Source: Sneathiella aquimaris (GTDB lineage Bacteria; Pseudomonadota; Alphaproteobacteria; Sneathiellales; Sneathiellaceae). Taken from it: a DNA stretch of 64,000 bases. Position numbers and translations under genes: made by a program. Positions within the stretch are counted from its first letter, which is position 1. Each line of letters opens with the position of its first letter. The notes under the pieces are model-generated. The model was not told where the DNA came from. It made no database searches and saw only the letters and a program-made list of their open reading frames with translations. Where the stretch lies: the NCBI RefSeq assembly GCF_026409565.1, contig NZ_CP112881.1, positions 2,921,501 to 2,985,500 of the forward strand. The letters run 5' to 3'. This document shows positions 14,916-58,037 of the stretch, one piece after another.

Positions 14916-17900
14916 TCACAATTTGGGCGTATCAAGCTTCTTCAGCAAATGCGCCATATTCTCTTTCGCCTTTTCAACAGATGCTTCTTTAACCGGCCCG
15001 TATCCACGAATAGCAGCCGGGATGTCAAAAATTTCCTGCGCAACCCTCATGTTTTCAGCATCAATTTCTGGCGCGATCTTTTTAAGCGTCGTGGCATACC
15101 AGTCGATCAGGGCACGTTCCATCTTTCGCTCAGCCGTGTATCCAAACGGATCCAATGCTGTTCCGCGCAATTTTTTGAAAGACCGCAATCCTTTAAACGC
15201 GGTGTTCATCCAAGGACCGAAATTTTTCTTTTTCGGGCGCCCTCTTTCATCTTTTTTCCCGGACAACAATGGCGGTGCCAGATGATAGTGAATACGGAAG
15301 TCCCCCTCAAATTCTGAGGCGATTTTTTCCAAAAAAGCAGGATCACTATGCAATCGGGCAACCTCATACTCGTCCTTATAACTCATTAATTTGAAAAGAT
15401 TTTTTGCAACAGAACGGTTTAAAACCTCTTTTTCGTCGGGGCCTATCTGTACTTTGCTCATAATATCCTGAACGGTCACGCGATACATCTGTGCCCATGA
15501 GTCATCTTGATATTGAGTCAGGAATTCTGCATTTCGGTCTATCAACTGCGATACCGATGGGGCCGTCTCTTTTATACTTTCCAGTCGATCCATCATTTGC
15601 GTCTCTGGCCGTGCAAAGAGAATACGCCCCCAGTTAAAGGCCTTTTTATTTTGCTCAATTGCGACACCGTTCAATTCAATAGCTCTCAGCAACGCATTTT
15701 TGGACACCGGAACAAGCCCCTGCTGCCAGGCAAACCCTAACAACAGAACATTTGCAAAAACGCTGTCGCCAAGGAACTGTTCCGCAGCCGTATTTGCGTT
15801 GACCGTTGAAAGATGCTTCTGGCCAAAAAGATGAGAAAGATGTGAAAGACGGGTGTCAATTTTCACATCAGTGTCTGGATTGAGAGTAAAATCACCAGTG
15901 GGCATGACCGACATATTCACTGCCGCTTTCGTATGACCCTCAGCGTATGTGGCAGAGGCTTTAGGGGACGTGCTGACCACGAGATCACACCCGATCAATG
16001 CGTCTGCCTGCCCCGTGTCAATTCGCACCTGATTTATCTGGTCTGGTTGACTGGCGATCCTCACATAACTGATAACCGGCCCGAATTTCTGCGCAAATCC
16101 CATGAAGTCAAGAACAGATGCCCCTTTTCCTTCCAAATGCGCAGCCATTGTTATCAACTGCCCAACCGTGATGACCCCTGTTCCGCCGACCCCTGTTACA
16201 ATGACATTAAACGGGGTATCAACCGACGCCAGAACCGGATCCTTAATCGATGCTAACGCTTGGCTATAGGTTTCTTCATTACCGGTCGCAGAAGGTCGGC
16301 GCCTTTGCCCACCTTCAATTGTAACGAAACTTGGGCAAAATCCGTCAAGGCAGGAAAAATCCTTGTTACACGCATTTTGATTAATCCGGCGTTTGCGGCC
16401 AAATTCGGTTTCCAACGGTTCGACAGACAGACAGTTTGAAGCAACAGAGCAGTCCCCGCATCCTTCGCATACGGCTGGATTTATATAAGCAAAGCGCGGG
16501 ACATCCTCCATAAGGCCCCTCTTCCGACGGCGGCGCTTTTCTGTGGCGCAGGTCTGTTCATAAATCAGTGCCGTGACCCCTGATATATCGCGTAGTTCCC
16601 GCTGAACATTGTCCAACTGGCTGCGATCATCAAACGTCACTCCTGCTGGAAATTCTTTTGGATCAAATTTGTCAATTGCATCAGAAAGAAGCGCAATCCT
16701 CTGAATACCTTCGGCCCGCAAAGAGTGAGCAATGGACTGCACACTCATCGGTCCGTCGAAGGGCTGGCCTCCGGTCATCGCTGTGGCGTCATTATAGAGG
16801 ATTTTAAAGGTGATATTGGTTTGCGCGGCAATCGCCTGACGGATCGCAAGACTACCGGAATGATAATAAGTTCCGTCGCCCAAGTTCTGGAAAATATGAC
16901 GACCCTTGTTAAACCGGGATTTCGCAACCCAGTTAACGCCTTCACCGCCCATCTGGATAAGATAGTTTGTATCCCGATCCATCCAGCTTGCCATAAAATG
17001 ACAGCCGATGCCTGCCAGCGCTTCCGAACCTTCCGGCACCTTTGTCGATCTATTATGCGGACATCCGGAACAAAAATAGGGCGTTCGGGTCGCCCCTTCA
17101 ACGTTAAGCGATATCACTCCCTTTTGTAGAATTTTCTCTGCTTTTTCAGAGAGGTTCAATCCTTCAAAAACAGAGTCTATTCGCCGGGCGACGATGACCG
17201 CCAGCTGTTTTGGAGAGAGTTCACCCGTCCAGGGGATTAGCCGCTGTCCATATTCATCATTTTTCCCGACCATTCTTTCCGGTTTTGCGCCGGGAATGTC
17301 ATAAAAATATTCTTTGAACTGGCTTTCAATAATGCCCCGTTTCTCTTCGATCACGAGAACTTCTTTCTTGCCCCGCACAAAATCGAGCGATGACTTTTTA
17401 GCCAGAGGCCATACCAACCCGATTTTATAAATATCAATCCCGATTGCCCGCGCCTCAGCTTCACCAATACCAAGCAGGCGCAAGGCCTCCATCAAATCAA
17501 GATGCGCCTTACCTGTTGTAACGATGCCGTAAGTGGCATCCGGCACCTCATAGATATGCCGGTCAATGGGGTTGGCATCGGCAAACGCTAGAACCGCGTG
17601 CTTTTTCGCTTCAAGGCGCTCTTCAATCTGCGGGCCGGGAAAATCTGGCCACCGATAATGAAGTCCGGTTGGCGGCACATCAAAATCAGGGGTAACAAAT
17701 TCTCTAGGGGGCAGCAGGTCAACCGTCATGCCACTTTCGACCGCTTCAGTCGCCGCCTTAAAACCAACCCACATTCCACTAAAGCGGGACAATGCATAGC
17801 CATATTCACCGTAACTGAGATATTCAGCCACATTCGAAGGGTTCAATATGGGCATAAAAAAAGTCAGGAAGGCAGCATCGGATTGATGCGGCATGGAAGA

Positions 17901-44870: not shown

Positions 44871-45581
44871 ATGGAGCCCCTTCACCCATCTGACATATTC
44901 CCATCGAAAACCCAATCTTTGGAAAATCAGATGAACCAAATTCGAGAAGACCTCGAAAATGGACGGCCTGCCGGCACTGTTCTTGTCTATTTGATCACCC
45001 TTGCTAAAGCCTTTAATGCAGAAAACGCCGATCAGGAGAGGAAGGAAGCGGGCAACAAGAGCGAAGCCTTGCCACCACTAGACTCGTTTCTGATTGGACC
45101 GCGCCACGTGAACGAAATTGTAATCATGCGCGTTGAAAAAATTGTGGAAAAGATATTGTGGGGCCTTGATGGTTGGCTGGATAAACGTCTTCTGTGGATA
45201 GCCGCACAGAACGCCCCCCAAGAAACCAGTTTTCCCAATCAGGAGCAGAGACAGGACGAACCTCAATCATTGACATTCTCCTATCTACAATCGTTGCTCA
45301 ACCAAATGGAACAATTATCCCAAGACCCCTTGGAAAATGACGCCTTAAATCAGCTCATTCATCTGCAAGATCTGGTTACCGGTATTCATCAGAAAATCAT
45401 CCGATTAAGACAAAAGCTGATACTGCTTGTCTGGCGAAGCACCGCATCGCATTTCCCTATTGACCTTCACCACCAACTCGGAAACGAAACGATGACTCTC
45501 ATCATGAGTTATTTCCTGGATGATATACCCGCAAGGAACCTACCGGACAGATCGGCATTGGAACCCCCTGGTGCCCGCTAA
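44871..45581 (+). CDS. Uncharacterised protein, paralogue of the 56254-57066 gene
   Basis: 236 residues, no signal peptide, no transmembrane segment, mostly helical and rich in Gln, Leu and Glu. I recognise no family. It is colinear with the protein at 56254-57066: IREDLENGRPAGTVLVYL against IYGDLCYGRSPGETLEQL near the N-terminus, LTFSYLQSLLNQ against LNFAYLSYLAGQ in the middle, and IRLRQKLILLVW...LGNETMTLIMSYFLDD against HRIRHRLPFVLW...LNDDIMNIILGYCIDD at the C-terminus. The two are therefore full-length but diverged paralogues. ATG at 44871 follows AGGAG; a TTG lies one codon earlier. Monocistronic. Confidence 0.8.
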   Translation: MEPLHPSDIFPSKTQSLENQMNQIREDLENGRPAGTVLVYLITLAKAFNAENADQERKEAGNKSEALPPLDSFLIGPRHVNEIVIMRVEKIVEKILWGLDGWLDKRLLWIAAQNAPQETSFPNQEQRQDEPQSLTFSYLQSLLNQMEQLSQDPLENDALNQLIHLQDLVTGIHQKIIRLRQKLILLVWRSTASHFPIDLHHQLGNETMTLIMSYFLDDIPARNLPDRSALEPPGAR

Positions 45582-45724
45582 AAATATGGACAGCAGCAAG
45601 CGAAACAAATACCCAACCCGCCCTGTCAAAAGACGATCGGTTTTGGCGGACAATCTTGAACTGCAAATCCTTTTCACCTTAGGATAGGCGCCAACGCAGC
45701 AGATATGGAAAACTAGGAGGTCAC

Positions 45725-46213
45725 ATGATCAACAACAGAATATGGCTCTTGTGTGTTCCAATATTCCTTTTGATGATCTCCTCTTCCTGGGCGAAAGGAC
45801 CTGAATATCCCGGTCCCTACTCGGCAGAGGTTTATTATATCACCGATGGTGATACATTTTTCGCACGGGTCAATCTATGGCCAGGCATCTATACTGACGT
45901 CAGTATTCGCATCCGAGGTGTAGATACGCCGGAAAGTTGGCGGCCTAAATGTGATCAGGAGAAAATTGCAGGAAAAGCAGCAACGGACTTTCTGATCAAT
46001 CGTTTCAATAGTCCGTATCGAGGCGCCGTTTTAGGAAAACCAATGGCCAAGGTTACCTTAAAAAATGTTAAGCTTGGCAAGTATGCCGGCCGAGCCCTGG
46101 CAGATGTACTACATGATGGCGAGGATGTTGCAAGCCTTATCATCGAAGAAGGCCACGGCAGGCCTTATCAGGGCGGTAAACGTCAAAGCTGGTGCTTACC
46201 GGACGATGACTAA
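45725..46213 (+). CDS. Exported thermonuclease family (SNase-like) protein
   Basis: 162 residues with a signal peptide (hydrophobic core 6-21, SSWAK). The staphylococcal-nuclease fold is shown by ITDGDTFFARV, IRIRGVDTPES (catalytic Arg, Asp and Glu) and LGKYAGRALADV, where the second catalytic Arg lies. The calcium-dependent phosphodiesterase activity would act on extracellular or periplasmic nucleic acid. AGGAGGT is six bases before the ATG. Single gene, convergent with a hydrolase gene. Confidence 0.9.
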   Translation: MINNRIWLLCVPIFLLMISSSWAKGPEYPGPYSAEVYYITDGDTFFARVNLWPGIYTDVSIRIRGVDTPESWRPKCDQEKIAGKAATDFLINRFNSPYRGAVLGKPMAKVTLKNVKLGKYAGRALADVLHDGEDVASLIIEEGHGRPYQGGKRQSWCLPDDD

Positions 46214-46237
46214 TCAGGTGCTTACCGCAGATAAACC

Positions 46238-46275
46238 GTTCAATAGGACCGATGCTATCACGGGCCCTATTGAAC
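46238..46275. terminator. Candidate bidirectional terminator between nuclease and hydrolase genes
   Basis: Arms GTTCAATAGG (46238-46247) and CCTATTGAAC (46266-46275) pair perfectly; a further CCG/CGG pair lies inside. It occupies the middle of the 75-base gap between convergent genes. No clear T-run follows on either side. Confidence 0.5.
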
Positions 46276-46288
46276 CATTTCCCACAGT

Positions 46289-47596
46289 TTATTTTTTAGG
46301 TAAATACTGAAGCTTCAATCCCTTTGCAGTCCGATTGGCAAAGCCTTTCCAATAGGTATGCTCCGGTTTCAAAGTACCGTCTTTTTCGGCGGCATAGACA
46401 CCCTTTTGCGCATCTTCCACTAAGTCCAGATAGGGCTGCATTTCTTTATCTGCCCGCAAATATTTTCCGAAATACGCCGTCGCAAAATGCTGCGTAATGT
46501 TATTCATGCGAAGCGTATCCCAAACAGCGTCAGCATAATGGGCAAACGGAATGAAGTCTAAATGCTCGCTTGGTTTCCAGGCCTCTGCCGGGGCAGGGAT
46601 TGGTGCCGCTGCATTATGATTTGCGTTCTCAAACGTCAGCAAATACCGATCAATATTCACGGTATTTTCAAAAATAGCCTTTGTCCCTTTTTCGTAGCCA
46701 GAAACGTCATCAACACTGCCGGCCATAAAGAAGATGGGAACACGAACGCCTTCTAGTCCCTTGGCATCCCAAAAACCAGTATTCATTCCCCACGGAGCAA
46801 TAGAAATTATCGCCTTGAAACGATCATCCATCAAAGCCTCATGCTCCTTTGATCCCGCCATCATCCGCGTTAAAGTTCCATCAGGTGCCCCCCACTTATA
46901 TTCCGTACTTGCTTTTGTGACGCCGCCGCCTGCCGTGATCACCGATCCGTATCCGCCCATAGAATAACCGATCAAGCCTGTCGTCGACGCATCGACGATA
47001 CCCTTCAAGAAATGACCGTCCTGTTTACTGAGCCGGTCGATTTCGTTTAGTACGAAATTTTGGTCCAATGCTCGGTTAACCAGCGTGCTGCCAAAGGCGG
47101 CTTTGTAATCATAGGTACTTTCCGTATGATCGATGGATACGACGACATATCCCTTGGACGCCAGATTTTCACCTAAATGGCTCATCAAAAAGCGGTTTCC
47201 CGGATATCCGTGCGAGATAAGAACCAACGGGGCCGGTGAAGCTGGCTTTACCGGCTTTGCATCGCGAACGGCCTTACCATGGAGGGTGACCTTTGTTTTT
47301 CCGTCGCGAATATAAACATTTTCATACTGTCCCCCTTCCCGGTTCTCCGCCGAGGGATACCAGACTTCCACTGTCAAAGGACGATCATAGGTTGGATGCG
47401 GTTCGCCTACTTTTACATTCAGGATGTCGGTCTGTTCTTTGTGGACCAACTGCAATGTCCGCACCCCAATTTTCTGATCTCCCGGCGCGGCCAGCTCCGG
47501 CGCATCCGGTCGCAATCCGTCAATTCGATTATCTGCCGCCACCCCAGTATTTGCGATTAAAATTCCCAACGCCACACCCATCACGAGTTTTTTCAT
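46289..47596 (-). CDS. Exported alpha/beta hydrolase (PAF-acetylhydrolase/dienelactone hydrolase-like)
   Basis: 435 residues with a signal peptide (ANTGVAAD). The alpha/beta hydrolase core shows the oxyanion region LISHGYPGN, the nucleophile elbow GYSMGGYGS, an acidic residue near GSVDD and the late histidine in ENANHNAA. VEVWYPS near the N-terminus is typical of the platelet-activating-factor acetylhydrolase-like branch, in which short acyl esters are cleaved. ATG at 47596 (one codon after a TTG) is preceded by GGGAGAG. Divergent from the NMT1-like gene; substrate unknown. Confidence 0.85.
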   Translation of the reverse strand: MKKLVMGVALGILIANTGVAADNRIDGLRPDAPELAAPGDQKIGVRTLQLVHKEQTDILNVKVGEPHPTYDRPLTVEVWYPSAENREGGQYENVYIRDGKTKVTLHGKAVRDAKPVKPASPAPLVLISHGYPGNRFLMSHLGENLASKGYVVVSIDHTESTYDYKAAFGSTLVNRALDQNFVLNEIDRLSKQDGHFLKGIVDASTTGLIGYSMGGYGSVITAGGGVTKASTEYKWGAPDGTLTRMMAGSKEHEALMDDRFKAIISIAPWGMNTGFWDAKGLEGVRVPIFFMAGSVDDVSGYEKGTKAIFENTVNIDRYLLTFENANHNAAAPIPAPAEAWKPSEHLDFIPFAHYADAVWDTLRMNNITQHFATAYFGKYLRADKEMQPYLDLVEDAQKGVYAAEKDGTLKPEHTYWKGFANRTAKGLKLQYLPKK

Positions 47597-47828
47597 CAAA
47601 CTCTCCCATAGTTATTATTCTTATATGCCAAGCCATACGAGCTTAGTCTTTTCACCTTGATACTGGAATAGAATTTTTAGCCACCACAATGAAAAGCGAA
47701 CGAACCGAAGGAGCATTCTGTGCGAGCAGTCGCTGTAGGCAGCCGCCTTTACATAAGAAGAGGACAATATTAATCTGTGCTTCCCATACAATAAACGCAC
47801 AGGGTGCAAAAAAAGGAATTTAAAGGCT

Positions 47829-48716
47829 ATGGAACAAATCAACATTCAGTTCACGTTATTCTCAGCCTTTTATTCTCCCTTGATTTGCACGATCGCCGGC
47901 CCCTTTTTAAAAGAAGAAGGCCTGACACCCGATTGGTCTGTTGCCGCCCCCGGTGTGTCGGCCATTAGCGCTTTGGAAAATGGTACAGCCCATGTCGTAC
48001 AATCTGCACTGAGTCAGGGTTTTAGCGTTCTAGATCAGGGGAAGGTGCCAACAGCCGTTCATTTTGCCCAAATCAATGAAATGGATGGATTTTTCCTAAC
48101 GGGACGCAACGCCGATCCAGACTTTACCTGGAACAAGCTGGAGGGTGCTGACGTCATTTTGTTCGGGGGTGGACAACCTCTGGCGATGTTTAAATATGCC
48201 TGCCACAAAGCAGGGATAAACTATGAAAAAATCAATGCCCTGCATGTCGGCAATGCAGTTGAAATGGATAAAGCTTTCCGGTCAGGGAAAGGGCAATATA
48301 TTCAGCAACAAGGCCCGTTCCCACAACAGCTGGAAGCCGATGGCATTGGGCATATCGTCGGGCAGGTTGGAACATTAATTGGTCCGTGTGGTTTCTCAAG
48401 CCTTGCGGCAAAACCGGATTGGCTGGCCAGTGATATGGCGGGGGCATTTATGCGCGCCTACCGGAATGCCCGTCACTACATAAATGACGCCCCGGCGGCG
48501 GCGATTGCTAAACTGGAAAAACCGTTTTTTCCTGAAATTGAAGAACCTGTTCTTGCCAAATGCATAAAGAGTTATCAACAGCTAGGATGCTGGACACCTC
48601 ATGTAGAGATCACCCAAGACGCATTTGACGCCACTGTGGAAATATTCGCGTATAACGGCCTTGATGTTAAGAAATACAGGTTCGATCAGATTTGCGCATC
48701 AGAACCAGTTGGTTGA
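47829..48716 (+). CDS. NMT1/THI5-like substrate-binding domain protein without signal peptide
   Basis: 295 residues with the fold of ABC-transporter binding proteins for thiamine precursors, taurine or nitrate (NMT1/SsuA-like). It begins MEQINIQFTLFSAFYSPLI, with no export signal, and no permease or ATPase gene is adjacent. It is therefore probably cytoplasmic and may serve as a ligand-binding or enzymatic domain rather than a transporter component. Upstream AAAGG supports the start. The 230-base region before it separates it from the divergent hydrolase and has no gene. Confidence 0.78.
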   Translation: MEQINIQFTLFSAFYSPLICTIAGPFLKEEGLTPDWSVAAPGVSAISALENGTAHVVQSALSQGFSVLDQGKVPTAVHFAQINEMDGFFLTGRNADPDFTWNKLEGADVILFGGGQPLAMFKYACHKAGINYEKINALHVGNAVEMDKAFRSGKGQYIQQQGPFPQQLEADGIGHIVGQVGTLIGPCGFSSLAAKPDWLASDMAGAFMRAYRNARHYINDAPAAAIAKLEKPFFPEIEEPVLAKCIKSYQQLGCWTPHVEITQDAFDATVEIFAYNGLDVKKYRFDQICASEPVG

Positions 48717-48824
48717 ACAGGCCTAAGCGATATAAAACGCTGGACCATCCAGTTAATGTTTATTTGATATAAACAGCCATATAGGCTACCCTGACGCCTT
48801 TATTATTGCCAAAAAAGTTAGCTT

Positions 48825-49382
48825 GTGTACGTGAATTCGGATGAGTCAAAAAAAATAATAAACTGGCAATATGGTCTCTGCCCTCTGACCTCAGACCCAA
48901 ACCTTTTTGGACCCTTTGAAGGCTTGGTGTCTCTTTGGCAAAGCAAATGTACCCCGACATCACTTCCGCATAGAAAAGATTTTGACTTTCCGGATTTTCG
49001 GGGATGGTGGGGTAAGATTGCGATCGTAAAGTTTGAAAAAGACCCCTTTAACGTGCGTTTTGTTTTATGGGGCAGCCAACTGACCGAATGGTGGGGCGTC
49101 GACTACACCAACAAACTTCTGGGAGAAGAATCTCTTTCGCCCGCTATCTGGGAAACGGTAGAAGGGCGATATTTCAAGGATATGGTGAAAAACCCTTTCA
49201 TTGGCCTTGTTCAGGGACAACTGGATCAACATGACCGCTCGCACAGGAAAGTTGTTGGCGTTGACCTCCCACTAATTGATGGCAATGAAGTAACGCAGGT
49301 AATTCTAGCTCATTTAGAACTCGAAGAGGGAACGACATTTGATGACCTTTTCCCCAATGATCCAAGCACGCGATACTTCTGA
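48825..49382 (+). CDS. PAS_5-type PAS domain protein
   Basis: 185 residues. The centre (FDFPDFRGWWGKIAIVKFE, then VRFVLWGSQLTEWWG and TNKLLGE) fits the alphaproteobacterial PAS_5 group: a PAS-like sensing domain with no output module. The start is GTG at 48825 and there is no obvious ribosome site, so the N-terminus is uncertain. It is probably a single-gene unit. The 293 bases downstream, to 49675, contain no gene I can support. Confidence 0.72.
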   Translation: MYVNSDESKKIINWQYGLCPLTSDPNLFGPFEGLVSLWQSKCTPTSLPHRKDFDFPDFRGWWGKIAIVKFEKDPFNVRFVLWGSQLTEWWGVDYTNKLLGEESLSPAIWETVEGRYFKDMVKNPFIGLVQGQLDQHDRSHRKVVGVDLPLIDGNEVTQVILAHLELEEGTTFDDLFPNDPSTRYF

Positions 49383-49675
49383 CAGGGTTTCCCAGTCTCC
49401 TCGCCATGCACCGACGTTTATCCAGAATATCCTGAACAGTACTTTTATTTTCCGAATATTTTCATGATCCTGACGAAAGGGTTCGGGAAAGAAGTCGCGT
49501 TGCCAACATACATGCTTTGTGTGGCAGGGCCGCTTACTGCCTCTGTTAAACACCATTGATGAAGGCGATGCCTTTAATACTCTCCCACCACTTAAGAGCC
49601 CCGAACCTAAACCATTTGCGCCCCTGCTACGTATACAGTTCGAGCAGTAATGAAATTCAAATGAAACAAGGATGT

Positions 49676-50107
49676 ATGAAAGCTTTCTATCCCTATCTGA
49701 CCTTGTCAGGCGCACTTCCTTTTATTTTCTGTTCACTCCTGCTTTTTGCCGGGGTAGACACGGTTCCGTTTTTTGGAAACACTGAACATGTTCTAAAAAC
49801 CTATGCTCTCATAATTGCATCTTTTCTAACAGGCATTCACTGGGGACAGCATTTGAGTCTGACAGGAAAATGGAGCCGTTATCTTCCTGTTTTAAGCAAT
49901 ATCAATATCATAGTGCTTTGGCTCTTATACTTAATGCTGCCGTTTCAAGCTTTGCTCTTTGCTTTTGTCCTGAGCTTTTTGACGTCTCTCGCAATTGACC
50001 GAAAACTGTATCAAGAGGCACTTATTACGCCGGTTTATTTCAAAACCCGCTGCAGCGCATCCGTTCTTGTCATTCTCTCTTTAATAGCGTCAGGATTTTT
50101 CATGTGA
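49676..50107 (+). CDS. DUF3429 domain membrane protein
   Basis: 143 residues with four or five helices, starting FYPYLTLSGALPFIFC and containing FLTGIHWGQHLSL, the conserved region of the DUF3429 family (unknown function). AAGGA lies five bases before the ATG at 49676; the longer open frame starting at 49556 has no site. The stop (TGA at 50105-50107) overlaps the GTG start of the next gene, so it heads a three-gene coupled operon. In other bacteria DUF3429 genes are found near photolyase or oxidative-stress genes. Confidence 0.82.
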   Translation: MKAFYPYLTLSGALPFIFCSLLLFAGVDTVPFFGNTEHVLKTYALIIASFLTGIHWGQHLSLTGKWSRYLPVLSNINIIVLWLLYLMLPFQALLFAFVLSFLTSLAIDRKLYQEALITPVYFKTRCSASVLVILSLIASGFFM

Positions 50108-51108
50108 TCAACATCGCAATCATTGGCGCAGGTCTGTCAGGCCTGACCGCTGCAAATATGTTAAAAGACCGGTTTTCAATTACACTTTTCGATAAATCGA
50201 GAGGTGTCGGCGGACGCTTGGCGACACGGCGTTCACACCCTTATAATTTTGACCATGGAGCACAGTTCTTCTCTCCCAAAACAGATGACTTCAAAGCCTT
50301 CATCGCACCGATGATCCAAGCCGGTGTCATTGAACCCTGGGAGGCGCGGTTTGCAGAAATTGACGGAAGGAAGGTGACGCAGCAATGGCAATGGGACACA
50401 CAAAAACCTCACTATGTTGGTGTTCCCGGCATGAACGCGATTGGGAAATATTTGGCAAAGGGCCTAGAGGTCAAACTGAACACACCTGTAAAATCTATAA
50501 AGCAGATTGGCGAAAACTGGCACCTTGACGATGAACATGGCAATGCTTTGGGGGCCTTTGACTGGGTTATATCAACAATTCCCCCGAAACAGGCTGCCCA
50601 ACTAGTTCCTGCCAATGACCCTGTACAACAAATCCTGGAGGCAACTTCAATGAGCGGGTGCTTCTCAGTGATGCTCGGATTTGAAACACCCTTGCCGCTT
50701 GCGTTTGATGCCGCTTTGGTGGTCAACGAGAATATCAGCTGGATTTCGGCGAACCAAACCAAACCCGGCAGAGAAAATAGCTATAGCCTTTTGGTTCATT
50801 CAACAAACAAATGGGCAGATGCCCATCTGGATGACGACCGCGAGGACGCCTTGAAATATCTATGCGAACATGCCAGTGAGATTGTTGGTCACGACCTAAG
50901 CAAGGCAGTACACAAATCGATCCACGGCTGGCGCTTCGCCAACATTGAAAAGCAATCAGGGCCATCGCATTTTTGTGATGCGCAGAGAAAAATCGCCCTC
51001 TGTGGCGATTATTTCATTCAAGGCCGTATGGAAGCGGCGTTCACCAGCGGCAAACAGGTTGCACAAACTGTTCTTTCGGCTGCATCGCAAGGAAACACTA
51101 ATGCCTGA
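50104..51108 (+). CDS. NAD(P)/FAD-dependent oxidoreductase (renalase-like)
   Basis: 334 residues. A Rossmann GxGxxG motif (IAIIGAGLSGL) begins the protein, followed by DKSRGVGGRLATRR and DHGAQFF, the FAD-binding signature of renalase-like and amine oxidase-like flavoproteins; the C-terminal CGDYFIQGRMEAAFTSG binds the flavin. Start is GTG at 50104, four bases overlapping the DUF3429 gene; the next gene starts inside its last codons. Likely oxidises a dihydronicotinamide or amine; no targeting signal is seen. Confidence 0.9.
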   Translation: MINIAIIGAGLSGLTAANMLKDRFSITLFDKSRGVGGRLATRRSHPYNFDHGAQFFSPKTDDFKAFIAPMIQAGVIEPWEARFAEIDGRKVTQQWQWDTQKPHYVGVPGMNAIGKYLAKGLEVKLNTPVKSIKQIGENWHLDDEHGNALGAFDWVISTIPPKQAAQLVPANDPVQQILEATSMSGCFSVMLGFETPLPLAFDAALVVNENISWISANQTKPGRENSYSLLVHSTNKWADAHLDDDREDALKYLCEHASEIVGHDLSKAVHKSIHGWRFANIEKQSGPSHFCDAQRKIALCGDYFIQGRMEAAFTSGKQVAQTVLSAASQGNTNA

Positions 51109-51820
51109 AAACATCGTCATCATTGGCACTTCTGGCGCAATCGGGAGTGCTTTTACACGAAGAATGTCTGCTTTGCACCCGGCTTCAAAGATCCATGCGT
51201 TTTCTCAATCGTCAACGCCAACATCTGAGGGTAATATCACCTATCACCCGATCTGTTATGCTGACGAAGCCTCCATACAGGATGCTGCCTCACTTGCCGC
51301 AGAAACGGGCCCGTTGGACACTGTCATTGTTGCAACCGGTCTATTACATGAGGGCGATATTAGACCTGAAAAATCACTCAAAGACCTGTCGGCGAAGAAA
51401 TTCATGAAAATTTTTGAAGCAAATACCATTACTCCGTCCCTTCTTGCGAAACATTTTATACCCAAACTAAACAGAGACAACAAAGCAACCTTCGCAGCAA
51501 TCTCCGCACGCGTCGGCAGTATTTCTGATAACCGGCTAGGGGGCTGGTACGCCTACCGCGCTTCAAAAGCAGCGCTGAATATGATCCTTAAAAACGCCGC
51601 ATTAGAAACTGCCCGGCGCAATAAGAATGCGGTCATTATTGGCCTGCATCCCGGCACTGTCGATACTGACCTGTCAAAACCGTTTCAGGCAAATGTGCCA
51701 TCCGGAAAACTCTTCACGCCTGATTTCGCAGCAACAAAAATGCTAAAAGTCCTAGACTCGCTGTCACCTCAACACAGTGGTAAGATTTTCGCCTGGGACG
51801 GTCAGGAAATTTCCCCCTAG
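51101..51820 (+). CDS. Short-chain dehydrogenase/reductase (SDR) family protein
   Basis: 239 residues with the classical SDR layout: a nucleotide-binding segment near the start (IIGTSGAIGSAF, a variant of TGxxxGIG), an active-site serine region ISARVGSISDN, and the catalytic pair in YAYRASKAAL. HPGTVDTDLSKPF matches the CsgA-like branch. It overlaps the flavoprotein gene by eight bases (ATG at 51101, previous stop at 51106), with AAGGAAAC upstream, so it is translated with it. The substrate is unknown. Confidence 0.9.
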   Translation: MPENIVIIGTSGAIGSAFTRRMSALHPASKIHAFSQSSTPTSEGNITYHPICYADEASIQDAASLAAETGPLDTVIVATGLLHEGDIRPEKSLKDLSAKKFMKIFEANTITPSLLAKHFIPKLNRDNKATFAAISARVGSISDNRLGGWYAYRASKAALNMILKNAALETARRNKNAVIIGLHPGTVDTDLSKPFQANVPSGKLFTPDFAATKMLKVLDSLSPQHSGKIFAWDGQEISP

Positions 51821-51959
51821 ATCTACAAAAAATCAATATTGTATTGGAGGTTCATTGACGAACGTCAGAACCACGATCAACAGGGCCTGTCAGCCTCATC
51901 AAGCGTTCCGGATATTGATTTAGTTAGTGTTTGGATTTATCGTCATCACCCTAATTGAT

Positions 51960-51990
51960 CTGGACTATACGCTTCCATCTGATAGTCCAG
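51960..51990. promoter_or_regulatory. Perfect 9-bp inverted repeat before the binding-protein gene
   Basis: CTGGACTAT (51960-51968) and ATAGTCCAG (51982-51990) flank 13 bases and end 29 bases before the ATG at 52020. It can be a 5' UTR stem-loop or an operator. The rest of the 199-base gap shows no gene. Confidence 0.5.
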
Positions 51991-52019
51991 TGCCAAAGGA
52001 ATAAGGAGCATTACGATAA

Positions 52020-52823
52020 ATGCTTTCAATCAGCCTGAGACCGCAGCCGATAACAATCCTTCAGTTCTTATTGATCTTTTTGATTGGCCTTGCGCTATCG
52101 GCGGCCACTCAAGCAAAACCTCTTAATAAGTTTCAACTGATAACCGAACATTGGGCTCCTTATCAGTATGAAGAGAAACAGGAGCTAAAAGGGTATGCGG
52201 TTGATGTTGTAGTAGAAATATTGAAACGGGCAGGTTCCTCCCAAACAAAAGAAGAAATACAGTTACTTCCGTGGGCCAGGGCCTACCGCCAACTGGAAAC
52301 CACTAAAAACACTCTTTTATTTTCTGTGACAAGAACACCCGAACGTGAAAATAAGTTTAAATGGGTTGGCCCTATTTTTTATAATACGACCTATTTGATC
52401 GCACTTAAAGACAGCCACATAAAAATAGAAGACGGACATTCTTTAAATAAATATAAATTTGGAACAATTCGAAACGATGTGAGCGAGCTGTATCTTAAAC
52501 GGTATAATGTCGCCCCCCGAAACTTCTCCCATCATAACGATACAAGATCAAATCTGGAGATGCTCATGCGCCGCAGGATTGACATGATCGTGGTGGGGTG
52601 GGAAGCGTTCAAAAATGATGCCCAGTCCCTCGGCCTAGAGCCCGATAATTTCGAAAAGGTCTTTGAATTGGACAATTCCGAAGTCTCAATTGCATTTCAT
52701 CCAGAGACCCCTAACTGGATAATCGCTCGCCTTCAACGCACGTTGGATGAAATCAAATCAGAAGGTATATTAGAAAAATTCAAACAAAAATATGGCATAC
52801 AAGAACCGATAATGCCTCATTAA
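52020..52823 (+). CDS. Periplasmic substrate-binding protein (SBP_bac_3-like)
   Basis: 267 residues with an N-terminal signal peptide (long hydrophobic core, ATQAKP) and a polar amino-acid-type type II binding fold: QLITEHWAPYQYEEKQELKGYAVDVVVEIL, LPWARAYRQLE, and the C-terminal GILEKFKQKYG. No permease or ATPase genes are adjacent, and the domain resembles the solitary binding proteins of unknown role common in marine Proteobacteria. AAGGAG lies 12 bases upstream. Confidence 0.85.
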   Translation: MLSISLRPQPITILQFLLIFLIGLALSAATQAKPLNKFQLITEHWAPYQYEEKQELKGYAVDVVVEILKRAGSSQTKEEIQLLPWARAYRQLETTKNTLLFSVTRTPERENKFKWVGPIFYNTTYLIALKDSHIKIEDGHSLNKYKFGTIRNDVSELYLKRYNVAPRNFSHHNDTRSNLEMLMRRRIDMIVVGWEAFKNDAQSLGLEPDNFEKVFELDNSEVSIAFHPETPNWIIARLQRTLDEIKSEGILEKFKQKYGIQEPIMPH

Positions 52824-52943
52824 AAAACGCAGGAGCAGTTTGCCTGTTTTGTTTGACTAACGTTGATAAATAAAACGATAAGTTGGCTAAAATGAATGGC
52901 AGCCAACGAATAAAAAAACGCCGCCAAAATCAAATATAACAAA

Positions 52944-52981
52944 TTGAAAAACCACTCCCCGGCCCAACAAAGAACCGGGGA
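52944..52981 (-). terminator. Candidate terminator of the VOC-family gene
   Basis: Seven-base stem TCCCCGG (52956-52962) / CCGGGGA (52975-52981) with a 12-base loop. On the minus strand it is followed by TGG and a T-run (52950 to 52946). It lies about 80 bases past the stop of the 53064-53444 gene. Confidence 0.55.
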
Positions 52982-53063
52982 TATGAAAAGTGTCCTATTG
53001 AACAGAAATTAAAAAGCGCTTATCAGCCAATAATCACGTTCAGAACCTGCTTTGTTTTATCTG

Positions 53064-53444
53064 CTAGCCCATGCGGTGGAGGGCGCAGATTTTATTACCT
53101 GAAGGATCGCGCAAATATGCAAGATACAAATCACCTTTAACGCCTTCACGCACGCCCGGAGGATCTTCGCAAGTCGTACCGCCATGTGCAAGGCCTGCTG
53201 CGTGCCACTTGTCTGCAGCTTCCGGATCCGCCGCAGTAAAACCAATGGTGCTACCATTGCCGTGGCTGGCGGCCTTTCCGTCAATGGGTTTCGAGATGGA
53301 AAAAATACCTTCTCTTGTGAAGTAAAAGCACCGCCCTTTGTCGTCCATTACACCTGGTTTATGTCCCAACGCGCCAAGGATAGCATCGTAAAAAACCTTT
53401 GCTTTTTCGACATCATCTGCCCCGACCATAATATGACTAAACAT
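53064..53444 (-). CDS. VOC family protein (glyoxalase/bleomycin-resistance fold)
   Basis: 126-residue vicinal-oxygen-chelate domain protein. The N-terminus MFSHIMVGADDVEKAKVFYDAIL and the C-terminal LRDPSGNKICALHR are typical, with paired beta-alpha-beta-beta-beta modules and candidate metal ligands. AAAAAGGAA precedes the ATG. The activity (lactoylglutathione lyase-like or other) is not deducible. Confidence 0.88.
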   Translation of the reverse strand: MFSHIMVGADDVEKAKVFYDAILGALGHKPGVMDDKGRCFYFTREGIFSISKPIDGKAASHGNGSTIGFTAADPEAADKWHAAGLAHGGTTCEDPPGVREGVKGDLYLAYLRDPSGNKICALHRMG

Positions 53445-53593
53445 CTAAATTCCTTTTTCATTCTTATATATTCTGGTATTCCGCGGGCATGTTAATATGA
53501 CTGACTTAAGATTACGAACATTTTACGGCCCGACTAGAATATTTTAAGAAATACCCCCCAAAACTCAGGCCCTTCGTTATGCTGTGCCGGAGT

Positions 53594-54532
53594 TCAACGT
53601 GCTCGCCCGTGTTCCATCTCTCGTTCAGACCGTTTGAAAAATTTTGATAAAACCTGGCTAACGAAATTTGCGGGCATAAAAACAATCGCGTTGCCCAGAA
53701 GGACGATGATGATGCCTGATGTGGCAACCATGTTCCAGAAATACCCCTCAAAAAAAGAAGAGAACACCAGCGCTATGACAGGAAATAGCACGGTGGAATA
53801 AGCCGTCTTTTCCGGACCAATGCGTCCCACCAATGACAAATAGGCTGTAAAACCAATCACCGATCCCGGGATCGCCAGATAAAACAGGGCCCCAATATAG
53901 GAGAGCGAGAAATCAATTGTCAGAGGATCTCCAAGGAAAATTGTGAACGCAAAGAGGACGGACGTGCCATACAGCATCGCATAGGCGTTGCCGGTTATTG
54001 TATTCACATTATTGGCCGCGTTCCACTTTCCAATCATATTGCCCAACGAAAAGAAATAGGTACCGCAAAATGCCAGAAGCAATCCAATAAACATGTCTAA
54101 AAAACTCCGACTTCCATCCAATGTCGGCAGTAACAGCAAAATAAGACCGATTAACCCCAATGCGCCGCCGAACACTGTCTTTAAAGAAATCGCAGTGTTG
54201 AAAAACAACCGGCTATTCAGCACGTTAAAAATCGTCGCGAGGGAGAATACAACAGAGACAAGCCCGCTTGGAATGCGATCTGTCGCATAGTAGAAGCACA
54301 TGAAATTAAGTGAAAAAAGGCACAGCCCCTGCCCAAACAACCTTAAGTGAGCCTTTTGAGGCAAGCGCATCCCCTTTCGCATAATCACAAGGCCGCTGAA
54401 TAAAACAATCGACGCCAAGGCAAACCGATAGGCGATTGATTGCGCGACAGGGACAGTTCCCAATTGCAACGATATTGCGAACCATGTTGTCCCCCAGATC
54501 ATTACAGTCAAAATGTACAAAAAACCTGACAT
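53594..54532 (-). CDS. EamA/DMT family transporter
   Basis: 312 residues, ten predicted helices in two EamA repeats (first: MIWGTTWFAISLQLG...; second: GSVIGFTAYLSLVGRIGPEKTAYSTVLFPVIAL). It is a permease of the drug/metabolite transporter superfamily. I use the ATG at 54532, after AAGGAGTG; an upstream frame to 54562 lacks a site. Divergent from an AraC-family regulator that may control it; the 173-base gap has no other gene. Confidence 0.9.
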   Translation of the reverse strand: MSGFLYILTVMIWGTTWFAISLQLGTVPVAQSIAYRFALASIVLFSGLVIMRKGMRLPQKAHLRLFGQGLCLFSLNFMCFYYATDRIPSGLVSVVFSLATIFNVLNSRLFFNTAISLKTVFGGALGLIGLILLLLPTLDGSRSFLDMFIGLLLAFCGTYFFSLGNMIGKWNAANNVNTITGNAYAMLYGTSVLFAFTIFLGDPLTIDFSLSYIGALFYLAIPGSVIGFTAYLSLVGRIGPEKTAYSTVLFPVIALVFSSFFEGYFWNMVATSGIIIVLLGNAIVFMPANFVSQVLSKFFKRSEREMEHGRAR

Positions 54533-54685
54533 AAAACACTCCTTAAACAGGGCTGCTGTCATGCCAGAACCGTTTGCGCCGTTCTTTCACCTTCTTGCAT
54601 TTTTTACATATTCTTGCGGTTTAGTGACGCAGACCAAGAGCCGCCTATTGTCACCGGTTTCCATTCGCCGTATTTAGAGAGGGAA

Positions 54686-54709
54686 ATGTCAACAAATGGA
54701 CCCCAATGA
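54686..54709 (+). CDS. Possible 7-codon leader ORF ahead of the AraC gene
   Basis: ATG TCA ACA AAT GGA CCC CAA TGA, encoding MSTNGPQ, is preceded by a strong site GAGAGGG and its stop overlaps the ATG of the araC-type gene (ATGA at 54706-54709). The araC ATG itself has no clear ribosome site. A translational-coupling leader is plausible; expression is not shown. Confidence 0.3.
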   Translation: MSTNGPQ

Positions 54710-55584
54710 ACAACCCAGTTTCTGATCAAGATGTCTTTGGTATATTGAAGGATGCAGGCGCGACGATCCTGCGATCCGTGGACATTGGCAACGGCCTGTC
54801 GGCCGCTCAGTGGTTCAATCAAAATGGTGAAGCGGCGTATGATCAACCGGGCCATCACACCTTCAGTGTTTACTTGAACGGCGGCGAAGCGGTAGAGCGT
54901 ATTGACAAACATGGCGCACATATTGGTGGCGCGCCCGGCAAGATCTGTTTGTTGCCTGAAGACCACAGATCTCGATGGAATATTCCGCAGAAACTGGAAA
55001 TGTTTCACCTGTATTTTGACTCTCAAAAGATTAAATCGCTGGCGTTACAGGCTTTTGATCGGGACCCGCGTCAAGTAGAATTGCAAGATCTGACATTTGA
55101 GGCAGATACCTATGCAGAAAACATACTAAAGCATGTCATCCTTCCCTTGGATTGGTCGGAACGGGCAAACCGACTGGCATTATCAAGTGCAGGCGACCTG
55201 TTGCTCATCCATATCCTGAAAAACTATTCACAAACACCGCTAAACTTGCCTCCTGTCACAGGCGGCTTACCGCCGTCAATTCGCAAAAAAATCGCCGATT
55301 ACCTGGATTCACATTTCGGCGACCCCATCAGCATCGACACCCTGGCCAGTCTTGCCGGATATAGCAGCTTCCATTTTGCTCGCATGTTCAAAGAGAGCTT
55401 TGCCCTCCCGCCTCATCGATATCTGGAAAAAATCAGGATTAAAAAATCAAAAGAAATGCTAAGGGCTAACGATACACCTTTGGCACAAGTCGCCATAGCT
55501 TGCGGATACTCTTCACAGGCTCACTTTACCGCTCGTTTCAAAAACGCTGTCGGTCTCACGCCAAAACAGTTTCAAAAACTGTAG
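54706..55584 (+). CDS. AraC family transcriptional regulator
   Basis: 292 residues. An N-terminal cupin-like sensing domain (YDQPGHHTFSVYLNGGEA, then KICLLPEDHRSRW) is followed by a C-terminal AraC domain at about 190-290, with LASLAGYSSFHFARMFKESFALPPHRYL and VAIACGYSSQAHFTARFKNAVGLTPKQF. Divergent from the EamA transporter gene, a typical regulator/transporter pair, and followed six bases later by an uncharacterised gene. The N-terminal cupin suggests a small ligand, identity unknown. Confidence 0.92.
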   Translation: MNNPVSDQDVFGILKDAGATILRSVDIGNGLSAAQWFNQNGEAAYDQPGHHTFSVYLNGGEAVERIDKHGAHIGGAPGKICLLPEDHRSRWNIPQKLEMFHLYFDSQKIKSLALQAFDRDPRQVELQDLTFEADTYAENILKHVILPLDWSERANRLALSSAGDLLLIHILKNYSQTPLNLPPVTGGLPPSIRKKIADYLDSHFGDPISIDTLASLAGYSSFHFARMFKESFALPPHRYLEKIRIKKSKEMLRANDTPLAQVAIACGYSSQAHFTARFKNAVGLTPKQFQKL

Positions 55585-55590
55585 TTCGGA

Positions 55591-56115
55591 ATGGAGCCCT
55601 TGCAGCAAGCCGAAAAAACAAACATCCCGGATGGCAGTTTCATGCAGGTTTACGACAAAACACCCGGCTGTTTAACTGATGCATTCCGCTGCAAAGTCGA
55701 TTTCTCCGTTAATCTGGAACATTTTATTCAAGCTTTCTTTGACAGCTCTGTTTTTAGGCTGGAACGGCTACTGATCCAGATCCTTACCCGCAAGCAGGCG
55801 GACTTAACACAGGTAAAAAAACTGGCCTCTGGCACAGATAAGACGTTTGCCGTCTGGCAGGTCGCACAAAGATCCAACTTTGAAATACTGATGAAGGTCG
55901 GTACCGGCCCAATTAGAAGCTGGCTTGCAGCCTATCCGGATCAGGATGGAGGGACATCCCTCTATTTTGGCTCCGCTGTCCTCCCGACAAAAGGGGACAA
56001 AAATGGAAATCAGCAGGTTGGTTTTTTATTTCAGGCAACAGTTTGGTTTCATGAATTTTATTCTCGTCTGCTTTTAAAGTCAGCAGTAAGAACCTTGACG
56101 AAGCAACCGGCCTAA
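55591..56115 (+). CDS. Uncharacterised protein downstream of AraC regulator
   Basis: 174 residues, no signal peptide or membrane span. It looks like an alpha/beta START/SRPBCC-like or DUF2867-like small protein: FFDSSVFRLERLLIQILTR, then AVWQVAQRSNFEILM, RSWLAAYPDQDGGTSLYFGSAVLP and a C-terminal helix (WFHEFYSRLLLKSAVRTL). These resemble proteins I know only as hypothetical. It starts six bases after the araC stop, so it is probably co-transcribed and may act with that regulator or the divergent transporter. No ribosome site is obvious. Confidence 0.65.
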   Translation: MEPLQQAEKTNIPDGSFMQVYDKTPGCLTDAFRCKVDFSVNLEHFIQAFFDSSVFRLERLLIQILTRKQADLTQVKKLASGTDKTFAVWQVAQRSNFEILMKVGTGPIRSWLAAYPDQDGGTSLYFGSAVLPTKGDKNGNQQVGFLFQATVWFHEFYSRLLLKSAVRTLTKQPA

Positions 56116-56253
56116 CGCTAGGGCACCCAGAACCGAGACTTGCCTGAACGACATCAAATACATCATATCGGTGTATTGTATTTTAATTTCACTAGTTTAA
56201 GTTATGTTGCACCTCACCTAAGTGCATTCCTTTAGCGCAAAAAAGGTAATGCC

Positions 56254-57066
56254 ATGAAGCCACTCACGTTATTTAACATTTTCATTGAAACCAGATATCC
56301 GGATGATGTCCCTCTCGGGACAATTTATGGCGATCTTTGCTACGGCAGATCACCTGGTGAAACCCTTGAGCAACTCGCCCGCCTTGGAAATGGAGAAGAA
56401 GCCGTCCAGGAGGAAAAAGACGATGCAATCGACAGCGCAGAGCTGGACCTTCCTTCCTTCCCTCGTCTTGGAAAATCCAGTATTGAGGCTATGGTCGCCC
56501 TGAACAGCAATGGTATCCTGGCGCAAATGCTGGGCGGAATAAATATCTGGCTTGAAGAATGTGACAATTTATCAGATCAGGAACTATTCAATGCCTTCAT
56601 GAGAGGGCAAGCCGGTGACAATTACGAAGATGAACTGAACCCTTACGAAAATCTGAACTTTGCCTATCTGAGCTATCTCGCCGGTCAACTCAGAACCGTA
56701 GGAAGGCTCTTTCGCGCCCGCGACGTTGAAAATGAAATGCAGGAAAGGCCGATTGCCCTTCTTCAACTGACCCAGAGGCTCGTTCACCGAATCCGGCACC
56801 GTCTTCCCTTCGTTCTTTGGCAAAATGCACGACCAGAAGTAAAGGAAAATCTGAACCCGACGTTAAATGATGACATTATGAACATTATCCTGGGTTATTG
56901 CATCGATGATGAATTGGCCGCTGTAATATGCCCCCCTGCCCCTTCATCTGCCGGCCCTTCAAGATCGGCAAGGCGCATGGCGGCTGACCTATCCCGATTT
57001 AAAAATGAAGAGGGAAAAGAAGACGGCCCCGAAGACGACGGAGGCGATGGTCCCGCACAAGGCTAA
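56254..57066 (+). CDS. Uncharacterised protein, paralogue of the 44871-45581 gene
   Basis: 270 residues, soluble, acidic and helical, no recognised domain. N-terminal, middle and C-terminal blocks align with the protein at 44871-45581 (for example GRSPGETLEQL with GRPAGTVLVYL; IRHRLPFVLW with LRQKLILLVW; MNIILGYCIDD with MTLIMSYFLDD). It has a C-terminal extension absent from the other: a Ser/Pro/Arg segment, then a very acidic, glycine-rich tail (EEGKEDGPEDDGGDG). A strong terminator follows. AAAAAAGGT lies before the ATG. Confidence 0.82.
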   Translation: MKPLTLFNIFIETRYPDDVPLGTIYGDLCYGRSPGETLEQLARLGNGEEAVQEEKDDAIDSAELDLPSFPRLGKSSIEAMVALNSNGILAQMLGGINIWLEECDNLSDQELFNAFMRGQAGDNYEDELNPYENLNFAYLSYLAGQLRTVGRLFRARDVENEMQERPIALLQLTQRLVHRIRHRLPFVLWQNARPEVKENLNPTLNDDIMNIILGYCIDDELAAVICPPAPSSAGPSRSARRMAADLSRFKNEEGKEDGPEDDGGDGPAQG

Positions 57067-57079
57067 CCCCACTCCCACA

Positions 57080-57114
57080 GAAGGAAGCTCATCCGAGCTT
57101 CCTTCCCGTTTTTT
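57080..57114 (+). terminator. Strong Rho-independent terminator
   Basis: Perfect 11-bp stem GAAGGAAGCTC (57080-57090) / GAGCTTCCTTC (57095-57105), loop ATCC, followed by CCG and six T residues (57109-57114). It lies 14 bases after the stop of the 56254-57066 gene and isolates it from the next gene. Confidence 0.92.
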
Positions 57115-57251
57115 GACCATCCAAACACCATAAGTTAGATTTCTAGTTACGAGTTCTCTCCATCAAAATGGATGCAACCAAAAGACCAATGGCCCGACAA
57201 GCGAAGAACCTGACATTGAGGAGCGCAAGCACGCGGGAGGAGGAGGGTAAA

Positions 57252-58037
57252 ATGACAAAAAACAAGAAAATGAAATGGCCCGAAAATCTCTCTGATGAGG
57301 AGAGGATACAAAAAGCGAAAGAGTTGACCGACATACTTGTTGATCACGCTCGCGCTTTATTGCCGGTTCAGGCAAACGCTCAACATATTGTCTATTCCTC
57401 TTCATTAGCCAACCAGATCCCCATGTCATATGCAGCGAACGCGTTCATCACCTTGCAATATAGTGTGCATTTTTTTCTACTCGTACGTCTTTGCGCAATT
57501 TGGGATAGCGGGGCAATTGACCGTGAAAGTATTTTAACGGTCCATGCACTTATCAACACACCGCAGATAAAAAAGAAGATCGTCGAAGATATCTGTCAAT
57601 GGCACCTCGATGATCGGCAGTTCCATCCAAATTCGGCTGATGATACTGAAATTTTCAGAGCCGAACTCTCACTCGATCAAAAAAATGCTCAACAACCCTC
57701 AGAAACAATAGAAGGCAAAACAACACAATGGCTCGAAGATGTGACCACCAGGATTGAAAAAGCAAACACCCGCTATGTCGATAAAAAGCTCAAGGCAAAT
57801 AGGGACATGTTCATTGCCCACAATCTGGCATTGGCTGTGGGGCACAAGCAATTTCCCGAAAAAATTAAATATGGTGATGAAAAACCGCTACTCGCTGAAA
57901 CAATTAAAATTATTACCCTCTTGCATCGGGTGCTCAACAACGCGGACTTTGATTGGGACAAGGCCAAAAAGCAGACCGACCGGAATGCAGAACAGCTTTG
58001 GTCAAACTGTACTTTTTCAATTCAAAATAAGCATTGA
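57252..58037 (+). CDS. HEPN domain protein (AbiU2-like), putative RNase/abortive-infection factor
   Basis: 261 residues, helical. The C-terminal half carries RDMFIAH (R184 to H190), an Rx4-6H HEPN motif with a polar residue after the Arg, within KKLKANRDMFIAHN as in AbiU2-like proteins. HEPN domains are often metal-independent RNases in toxin-antitoxin and phage-defence systems. The preferred start at 57252 follows GGAGGAGGAGGG; an earlier in-frame ATG at 57168 has no site. It is isolated: no nucleotidyltransferase (MNT) partner is adjacent. Function is inferred from one motif and overall shape. Confidence 0.65.
   Translation: MTKNKKMKWPENLSDEERIQKAKELTDILVDHARALLPVQANAQHIVYSSSLANQIPMSYAANAFITLQYSVHFFLLVRLCAIWDSGAIDRESILTVHALINTPQIKKKIVEDICQWHLDDRQFHPNSADDTEIFRAELSLDQKNAQQPSETIEGKTTQWLEDVTTRIEKANTRYVDKKLKANRDMFIAHNLALAVGHKQFPEKIKYGDEKPLLAETIKIITLLHRVLNNADFDWDKAKKQTDRNAEQLWSNCTFSIQNKH

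What the first reader, a model, noticed from the sequence alone, without database searches (positions are those of the whole stretch)
44871..57066. Two full-length diverged paralogues of an unnamed protein family 11 kb apart
Proteins at 44871-45581 and 56254-57066 share three colinear blocks (GR.PG..L at the N-terminus, L.F.YL..L..Q in the middle, .LR..L...VW and (M)..I(M/L).Y..DD at the C-terminus) yet no known domain. Each is a single-gene unit. The second has a long acidic tail and ends at a strong terminator. The scattered copies suggest an expanded, lineage-specific family.
Basis: seen in the sequence. Interest (0 to 1): 0.66.

Follow-up and report, generated by a model that had tools for sequence, protein, structure and literature searches.

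The report
Small genus-restricted helical protein family
Two neighbouring bacterial genes do encode distant versions of the same protein, but the family is tiny (four copies found, in two species of one genus) and looks like an ordinary lineage-restricted accessory protein of unknown role.

Summary
The proteins at 44871-45581 (P1, 236 aa) and 56254-57066 (P2, 270 aa) are full-length homologues: 24% identity, BLASTP E 8e-14 for the single comparison, local score 146 against a shuffled maximum of 51. Each is the other's only match in the 3.94 Mb genome. The family is lineage-restricted but not expanded: 2 of 25 genomes of the order carry it, both in this genus, two copies each; in the second species (G015) the copies lie 2.1 kb apart. 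No credible match was found in class, phylum and relatives samples (385, 398, 386 genomes, overlapping), phages, plasmids or viral contigs (14, 41-44). No Pfam, NCBIfam, PHROGs or PADLOC family matches credibly. The P2 model is all-helical, moderate confidence (pLDDT 66), with no significant fold match. No membrane segment or signal peptide is apparent by hydropathy. One T6SS and one T4SS marker are absent from 24 genomes of the genus, which weakens an injected-effector reading. Best reading: an old, closely placed pair of acidic cytosolic helical accessory proteins, probably protein-binding. Function is inferred, not shown.

The parts
44871..45581 (+). P1, 236 aa, the more diverged copy
   Evidence: Open frame; homologous to P2; GC 0.474 and GC3 0.506, like its neighbours
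56254..57066 (+). P2, 270 aa, closest to both G015 copies; all-helical model with a disordered tail
   Evidence: Open frame; best hits to the G015 copies at 30% and 28% identity; model pLDDT 65.8, pTM 0.63 on residues 1-239
57080..57105 (+). Terminator-like hairpin just downstream of P2, followed by a run of T
   Evidence: Consensus scan; not evidence of function in itself

Best explanation
P1 and P2 are two copies of a small lineage-restricted family of acidic, soluble, mostly helical proteins. Shown: homology, two copies per carrier genome, presence in only two of the genus genomes searched, variable genomic sites. Inferred: the gene arose or entered within this genus, duplicated nearby, and the copies diverged fast around a conserved helical core (GR..G..L helix near the N-terminus, LxGIxxWL helix, L.(F/I/L).YL..L helix, long R/H-x-x-L helix, (I/L)...(D)D at the end), with acidic flexible linkers and a variable tail. 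The most likely way of working is as a cytosolic helical bundle that binds another protein, alone or as a pair of copies, in a dispensable (niche, stress or defence-related) role. No catalytic signature was recognised.
For: Homology. Two copies per carrier genome. Absent from 22 of 24 genus genomes and from the wider samples apart from one chance hit. Copies close together in both carriers. P1's flanks are not conserved where the neighbouring deaminase gene has close relatives, and the site after the AraC/174-aa block holds other genes in G015 and G018. GC and GC3 of P1 and P2 match the surroundings. Helical prediction for P2. Hydropathy maximum over 19 residues 0.92-1.53 in the four members against 2.37 in a membrane transporter of the window; pI 4.4-5.5. 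T6SS and T4SS markers absent.
Against: Nothing shows a binding partner or a phenotype. The model of P1 is poor (pLDDT 47) and that of P2 only moderate. A quartet test of the four proteins rejects none of the three topologies, so it is open whether the duplication came before the two species parted. In a rough one-gene tree the two carriers are not sisters, which fits loss or transfer as well as birth within the genus. The SNase-like neighbour of P1 and the AbiU2-like neighbour of P2 do not recur at the G015 copies, so there is no guilt by association.
Confidence: 0.45

Rival explanations
1. Secreted or injected effectors, with the conserved tail (P-T/S-x-A-G-P in three of four copies, plus E/K-rich ends in the G015 copies) acting as an export signal.
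For: The tail motif is kept in P2 and both G015 copies, and in the two carrier genomes 3 of the 10 pattern matches are family members while none of the other 7 is a comparable gene end. No known domain; orphan; fast evolving.
Against: TssC/VipB (PF05943) and VirB4 (PF03135) are found in 0 of 24 genus genomes, with the control genomes ringing for both. No N-terminal signal is apparent by hydropathy. P1 lacks the tail motif. The pattern overall is hardly commoner than its reversed control (5 against 4 in G000, 5 against 1 in G015). Type III and type I secretion were not tested.
Confidence: 0.12
2. Accessory phage-defence or mobile-element genes: P2 works with, or sits in the same variable spot as, the HEPN/AbiU2-like gene downstream.
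For: AbiU2 (PF18734, E 2.5e-18, 66.7 bits against a cut-off of 26.8) begins about 100 bp after P2. The site is variable: another gene follows the 174-aa gene in G015 and G018.
Against: A terminator-like hairpin separates P2 from the AbiU2-like gene. No PADLOC match for P1, P2, both G015 copies, the 174-aa protein or the AbiU2-like protein. No relative in phages, plasmids or viral contigs. No defence gene was recognised beside P1 or the G015 copies.
Confidence: 0.15
3. Members of a known helical family too diverged to detect, for example a kleisin/MukF-like helical domain.
For: MukF chains top the structural re-alignment (Z 8.0, rmsd 4.9, 130 aligned) and the Foldseek list (E 0.34); a Wadjet JetABC chain scores Z 6.7.
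Against: The tool's own note puts Z under about 13 for helical bundles at the level of common arrangements; Foldseek finds 0 matches at E 0.001 or better; sequence identity 5-7% to MukF; no Pfam match.
Confidence: 0.12

Closest known systems
Lineage-restricted (ORFan) protein families of bacteria
   Same: Few members, one genus, no recognisable domain, patchy presence, variable genomic sites
   Different: Two diverged copies in each carrier, close together, with composition like the rest of the window
MukF / kleisin-like helical domains (best structural re-alignment)
   Same: A similar arrangement of long helices in a moderate-confidence model
   Different: 5-7% identity, no significant Foldseek E-value, no MukB/MukE partner looked for; may be only a common arrangement

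Membership tests
A single homologous family (P1, P2 and the two G015 proteins) | Sequence similarity beyond chance over the full length | tested here: met
   Six pairwise z-scores of 12.1-34.1; profile hits at E 3.8e-22 and 2.0e-18; hhalign E 3.2e-22 over 225 columns. P1 against the G015 copies alone is weaker (local BLAST E about 1e-5 to 1e-7)
Expanded family | Many copies per genome | tested here: not met
   Two copies in G000 and two in G015; none in the other 23 of 25 genomes
Any family in Pfam, NCBIfam, PHROGs or PADLOC | Credible profile match | tested here: not met
   Best: PHROG_2044 E 0.037 and Fib_alpha E 0.52 for P1, PHROG_10522 E 0.088 and DUF7032 E 0.14 for a G015 copy, all partial; the Pfam ones are below the cut-off
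T6SS or T4SS effector | The secretion machine is encoded in the genome | tested here: not met
   PF05943 and PF03135 in 0 of 24 genus genomes; one marker each, 7 of 24 genomes below the completeness/contamination bar
MukF/kleisin fold | Significant structural match | tested here: inconclusive
   Z 8.0 at rmsd 4.9; Foldseek best E 0.34
F-box-like C-terminus (recalled resemblance of LPxDxxxxILxY) | F-box profile match | tested here: inconclusive
   No F-box family reported by Pfam scans at E up to 10 for P1 and P2 and up to 1 for the G015 copies; HMMER filters drop weak short matches

The most novel reading that the evidence does not exclude
A new soluble protein family whose two copies form an obligate heteromeric pair, a private adaptor or defence module of a few species in this genus, with a helical fold not yet seen in solved structures.
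Probability: 0.1. Interest if true: 0.5.

Novelty: new member of a known kind. Interest (0 to 1): 0.22.

Why it matters
A pair kept in two species at about 25% identity is a small test case for how new gene pairs persist. There is no evidence so far of a new mechanism.

Tried and rejected
Collection scans by back-translated patterns gave nothing: genome contigs with P1+P2 and with P2 and viral contigs. These find close relatives only, and records very near the window may be left out.

The only extra hit in the genome samples, in G134 (E 0.0075 and 0.0070), lies inside a 210-aa frame that I recognise from memory as ribonuclease D and covers only the profile's last third; I treat it as chance. 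The plasmid-collection hit in Nonomuraea (E 0.3, 39% of the query) is likewise treated as chance.

A profile search of the PDB sequences gave two designed toroid proteins (E 0.0005 and 0.0011) over 35 profile positions. I treat this as helical-repeat composition, since the proteins are artificial.

Shared promoter motifs: upstream 250 bp of the four genes share only 8-10-mers in pairs; nothing convincing. Tail motif as a genome-wide signal: rejected. A possible third copy suggested by one tail match in the own genome (L051) turned out to be a 27-residue frame with no family sequence around it.

Literature: two searches, listings only, no paper opened; nothing in the listings concerned this family. 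The genus was guessed from memory as Sneathiella and was not verified.

Full report
Observation. P1 (window 44871-45581, 236 aa) and P2 (56254-57066, 270 aa) are intact open frames. BLASTP aligns them end to end at 24% identity, E 8e-14 for that single comparison; with the low-complexity filter on, the E-value is 2.8e-8 in one direction and 8e-13 in the other. Their local score of 146 compares with a maximum of 51 in 500 shuffles, and with best scores of 49 (P1) and 52 (P2) against non-family frames among 187 frames from the window and six other loci. The homology is real.

Copies and distribution. In the 3.94 Mb single-contig genome, P1, P2 and their joint profile each find only the two genes at E up to 10. 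In the order (25 genomes held, 24 of them in this genus) 2 carry the family: the window's genome and G015, two copies each. G015's copies are L008:8608-9375 (C1) and L008:11431-12180 (C2), 2.1 kb apart, on the same strand, with an RTX-repeat protein gene and a second frame between them on the other strand. The profile's ability to find C1 and C2 at about 25-30% identity shows that its misses in the other 23 genomes mean something at that level of divergence; 18 of the 25 genomes are at least 90% complete and at most 5% contaminated. Samples of 385 class, 398 phylum and 386 related genomes (overlapping) add only one hit, treated as chance.

Relationships. P2 is the most central member (30% to C2, 28% to C1), P1 the most diverged. 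The four-protein quartet is unresolved: approximately unbiased p-values of 0.28, 0.43 and 0.66 for the three topologies. A one-gene tree from a deaminase paralogue found in most of the genus does not place G000 and G015 as sisters; G000 groups with G010, which has no match but is only 86% complete. Loss, transfer and independent gain all remain possible.

Setting. The deaminase gene beside P1 has relatives at 70-71% identity in G002, G009 and G023, and none of these has P1, the SNase-like gene or any other gene of P1's surroundings next to it. The glyoxalase/DMT/AraC/174-aa block before P2 is partly conserved: the AraC, 174-aa and DMT genes are adjacent in G015 and G018. After the 174-aa gene comes a 212-aa frame in G015 and a 490-aa permease-like frame in G018, not P2. 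Both P1 and P2 therefore sit at variable sites. Their GC and third-position GC are like their neighbours'; C2 in G015 is lower (GC 0.42, GC3 0.34, against 0.455 for its locus).

What the protein is. No credible family match. The P1-first model is poor (pLDDT 47). The P2-first model, residues 1-239, is all-helical with pLDDT 65.8 and pTM 0.63, 123 of 239 residues at 70 or more. Foldseek finds 0 of 348 PDB and 0 of 460 viral matches at E 0.001 or better. The structural re-alignment is topped by MukF (Z 8.0) and STAT coiled-coil domains (about Z 7), a level the tool warns is common for helical bundles. All four proteins are acidic (pI 4.4-5.5) and show no membrane-like stretch.

Function. The effector reading is weakened by the absence of T6SS and T4SS markers in 24 genus genomes; type III and type I routes were not tested. 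The defence reading rests only on the AbiU2-like neighbour of P2, behind a terminator-like hairpin, with no PADLOC match. The remaining and most likely reading is a soluble helical, protein-binding accessory protein; this last step is inference.

Verdict. A real but small and ordinary lineage-restricted family: two diverged copies, not an expansion.

Noticed in passing
window 57168-58037 (+): HEPN/AbiU2-like gene (PF18734, E 2.5e-18) just downstream of P2; no PADLOC match.
   Followed up: partly
window 55591-56115 (+): 174-aa protein with no family match, found in 3 of 24 genus genomes (G000, G015, G018) and adjacent to an AraC-type regulator in all three.
   Followed up: partly
L008:7505-8494 (+): Asp/Glu or cysteate racemase-like protein, below the NCBIfam cut-offs, with an extra Q/P/E-rich stretch, 113 bp upstream of the G015 copy C1.
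   Followed up: no
L008:13531-14028 and 14975-15580 (+): Two very low-complexity G/D/E/S-rich proteins near the G015 copies, sharing a similar N-terminal segment (TLALSPITVDF-like).
   Followed up: no
window 45725-46213 (+): SNase-like protein with a hydrophobic N-terminus, just below the Pfam cut-off (20.4 against 21 bits; hydropathy), 143 bp after P1.
   Followed up: no
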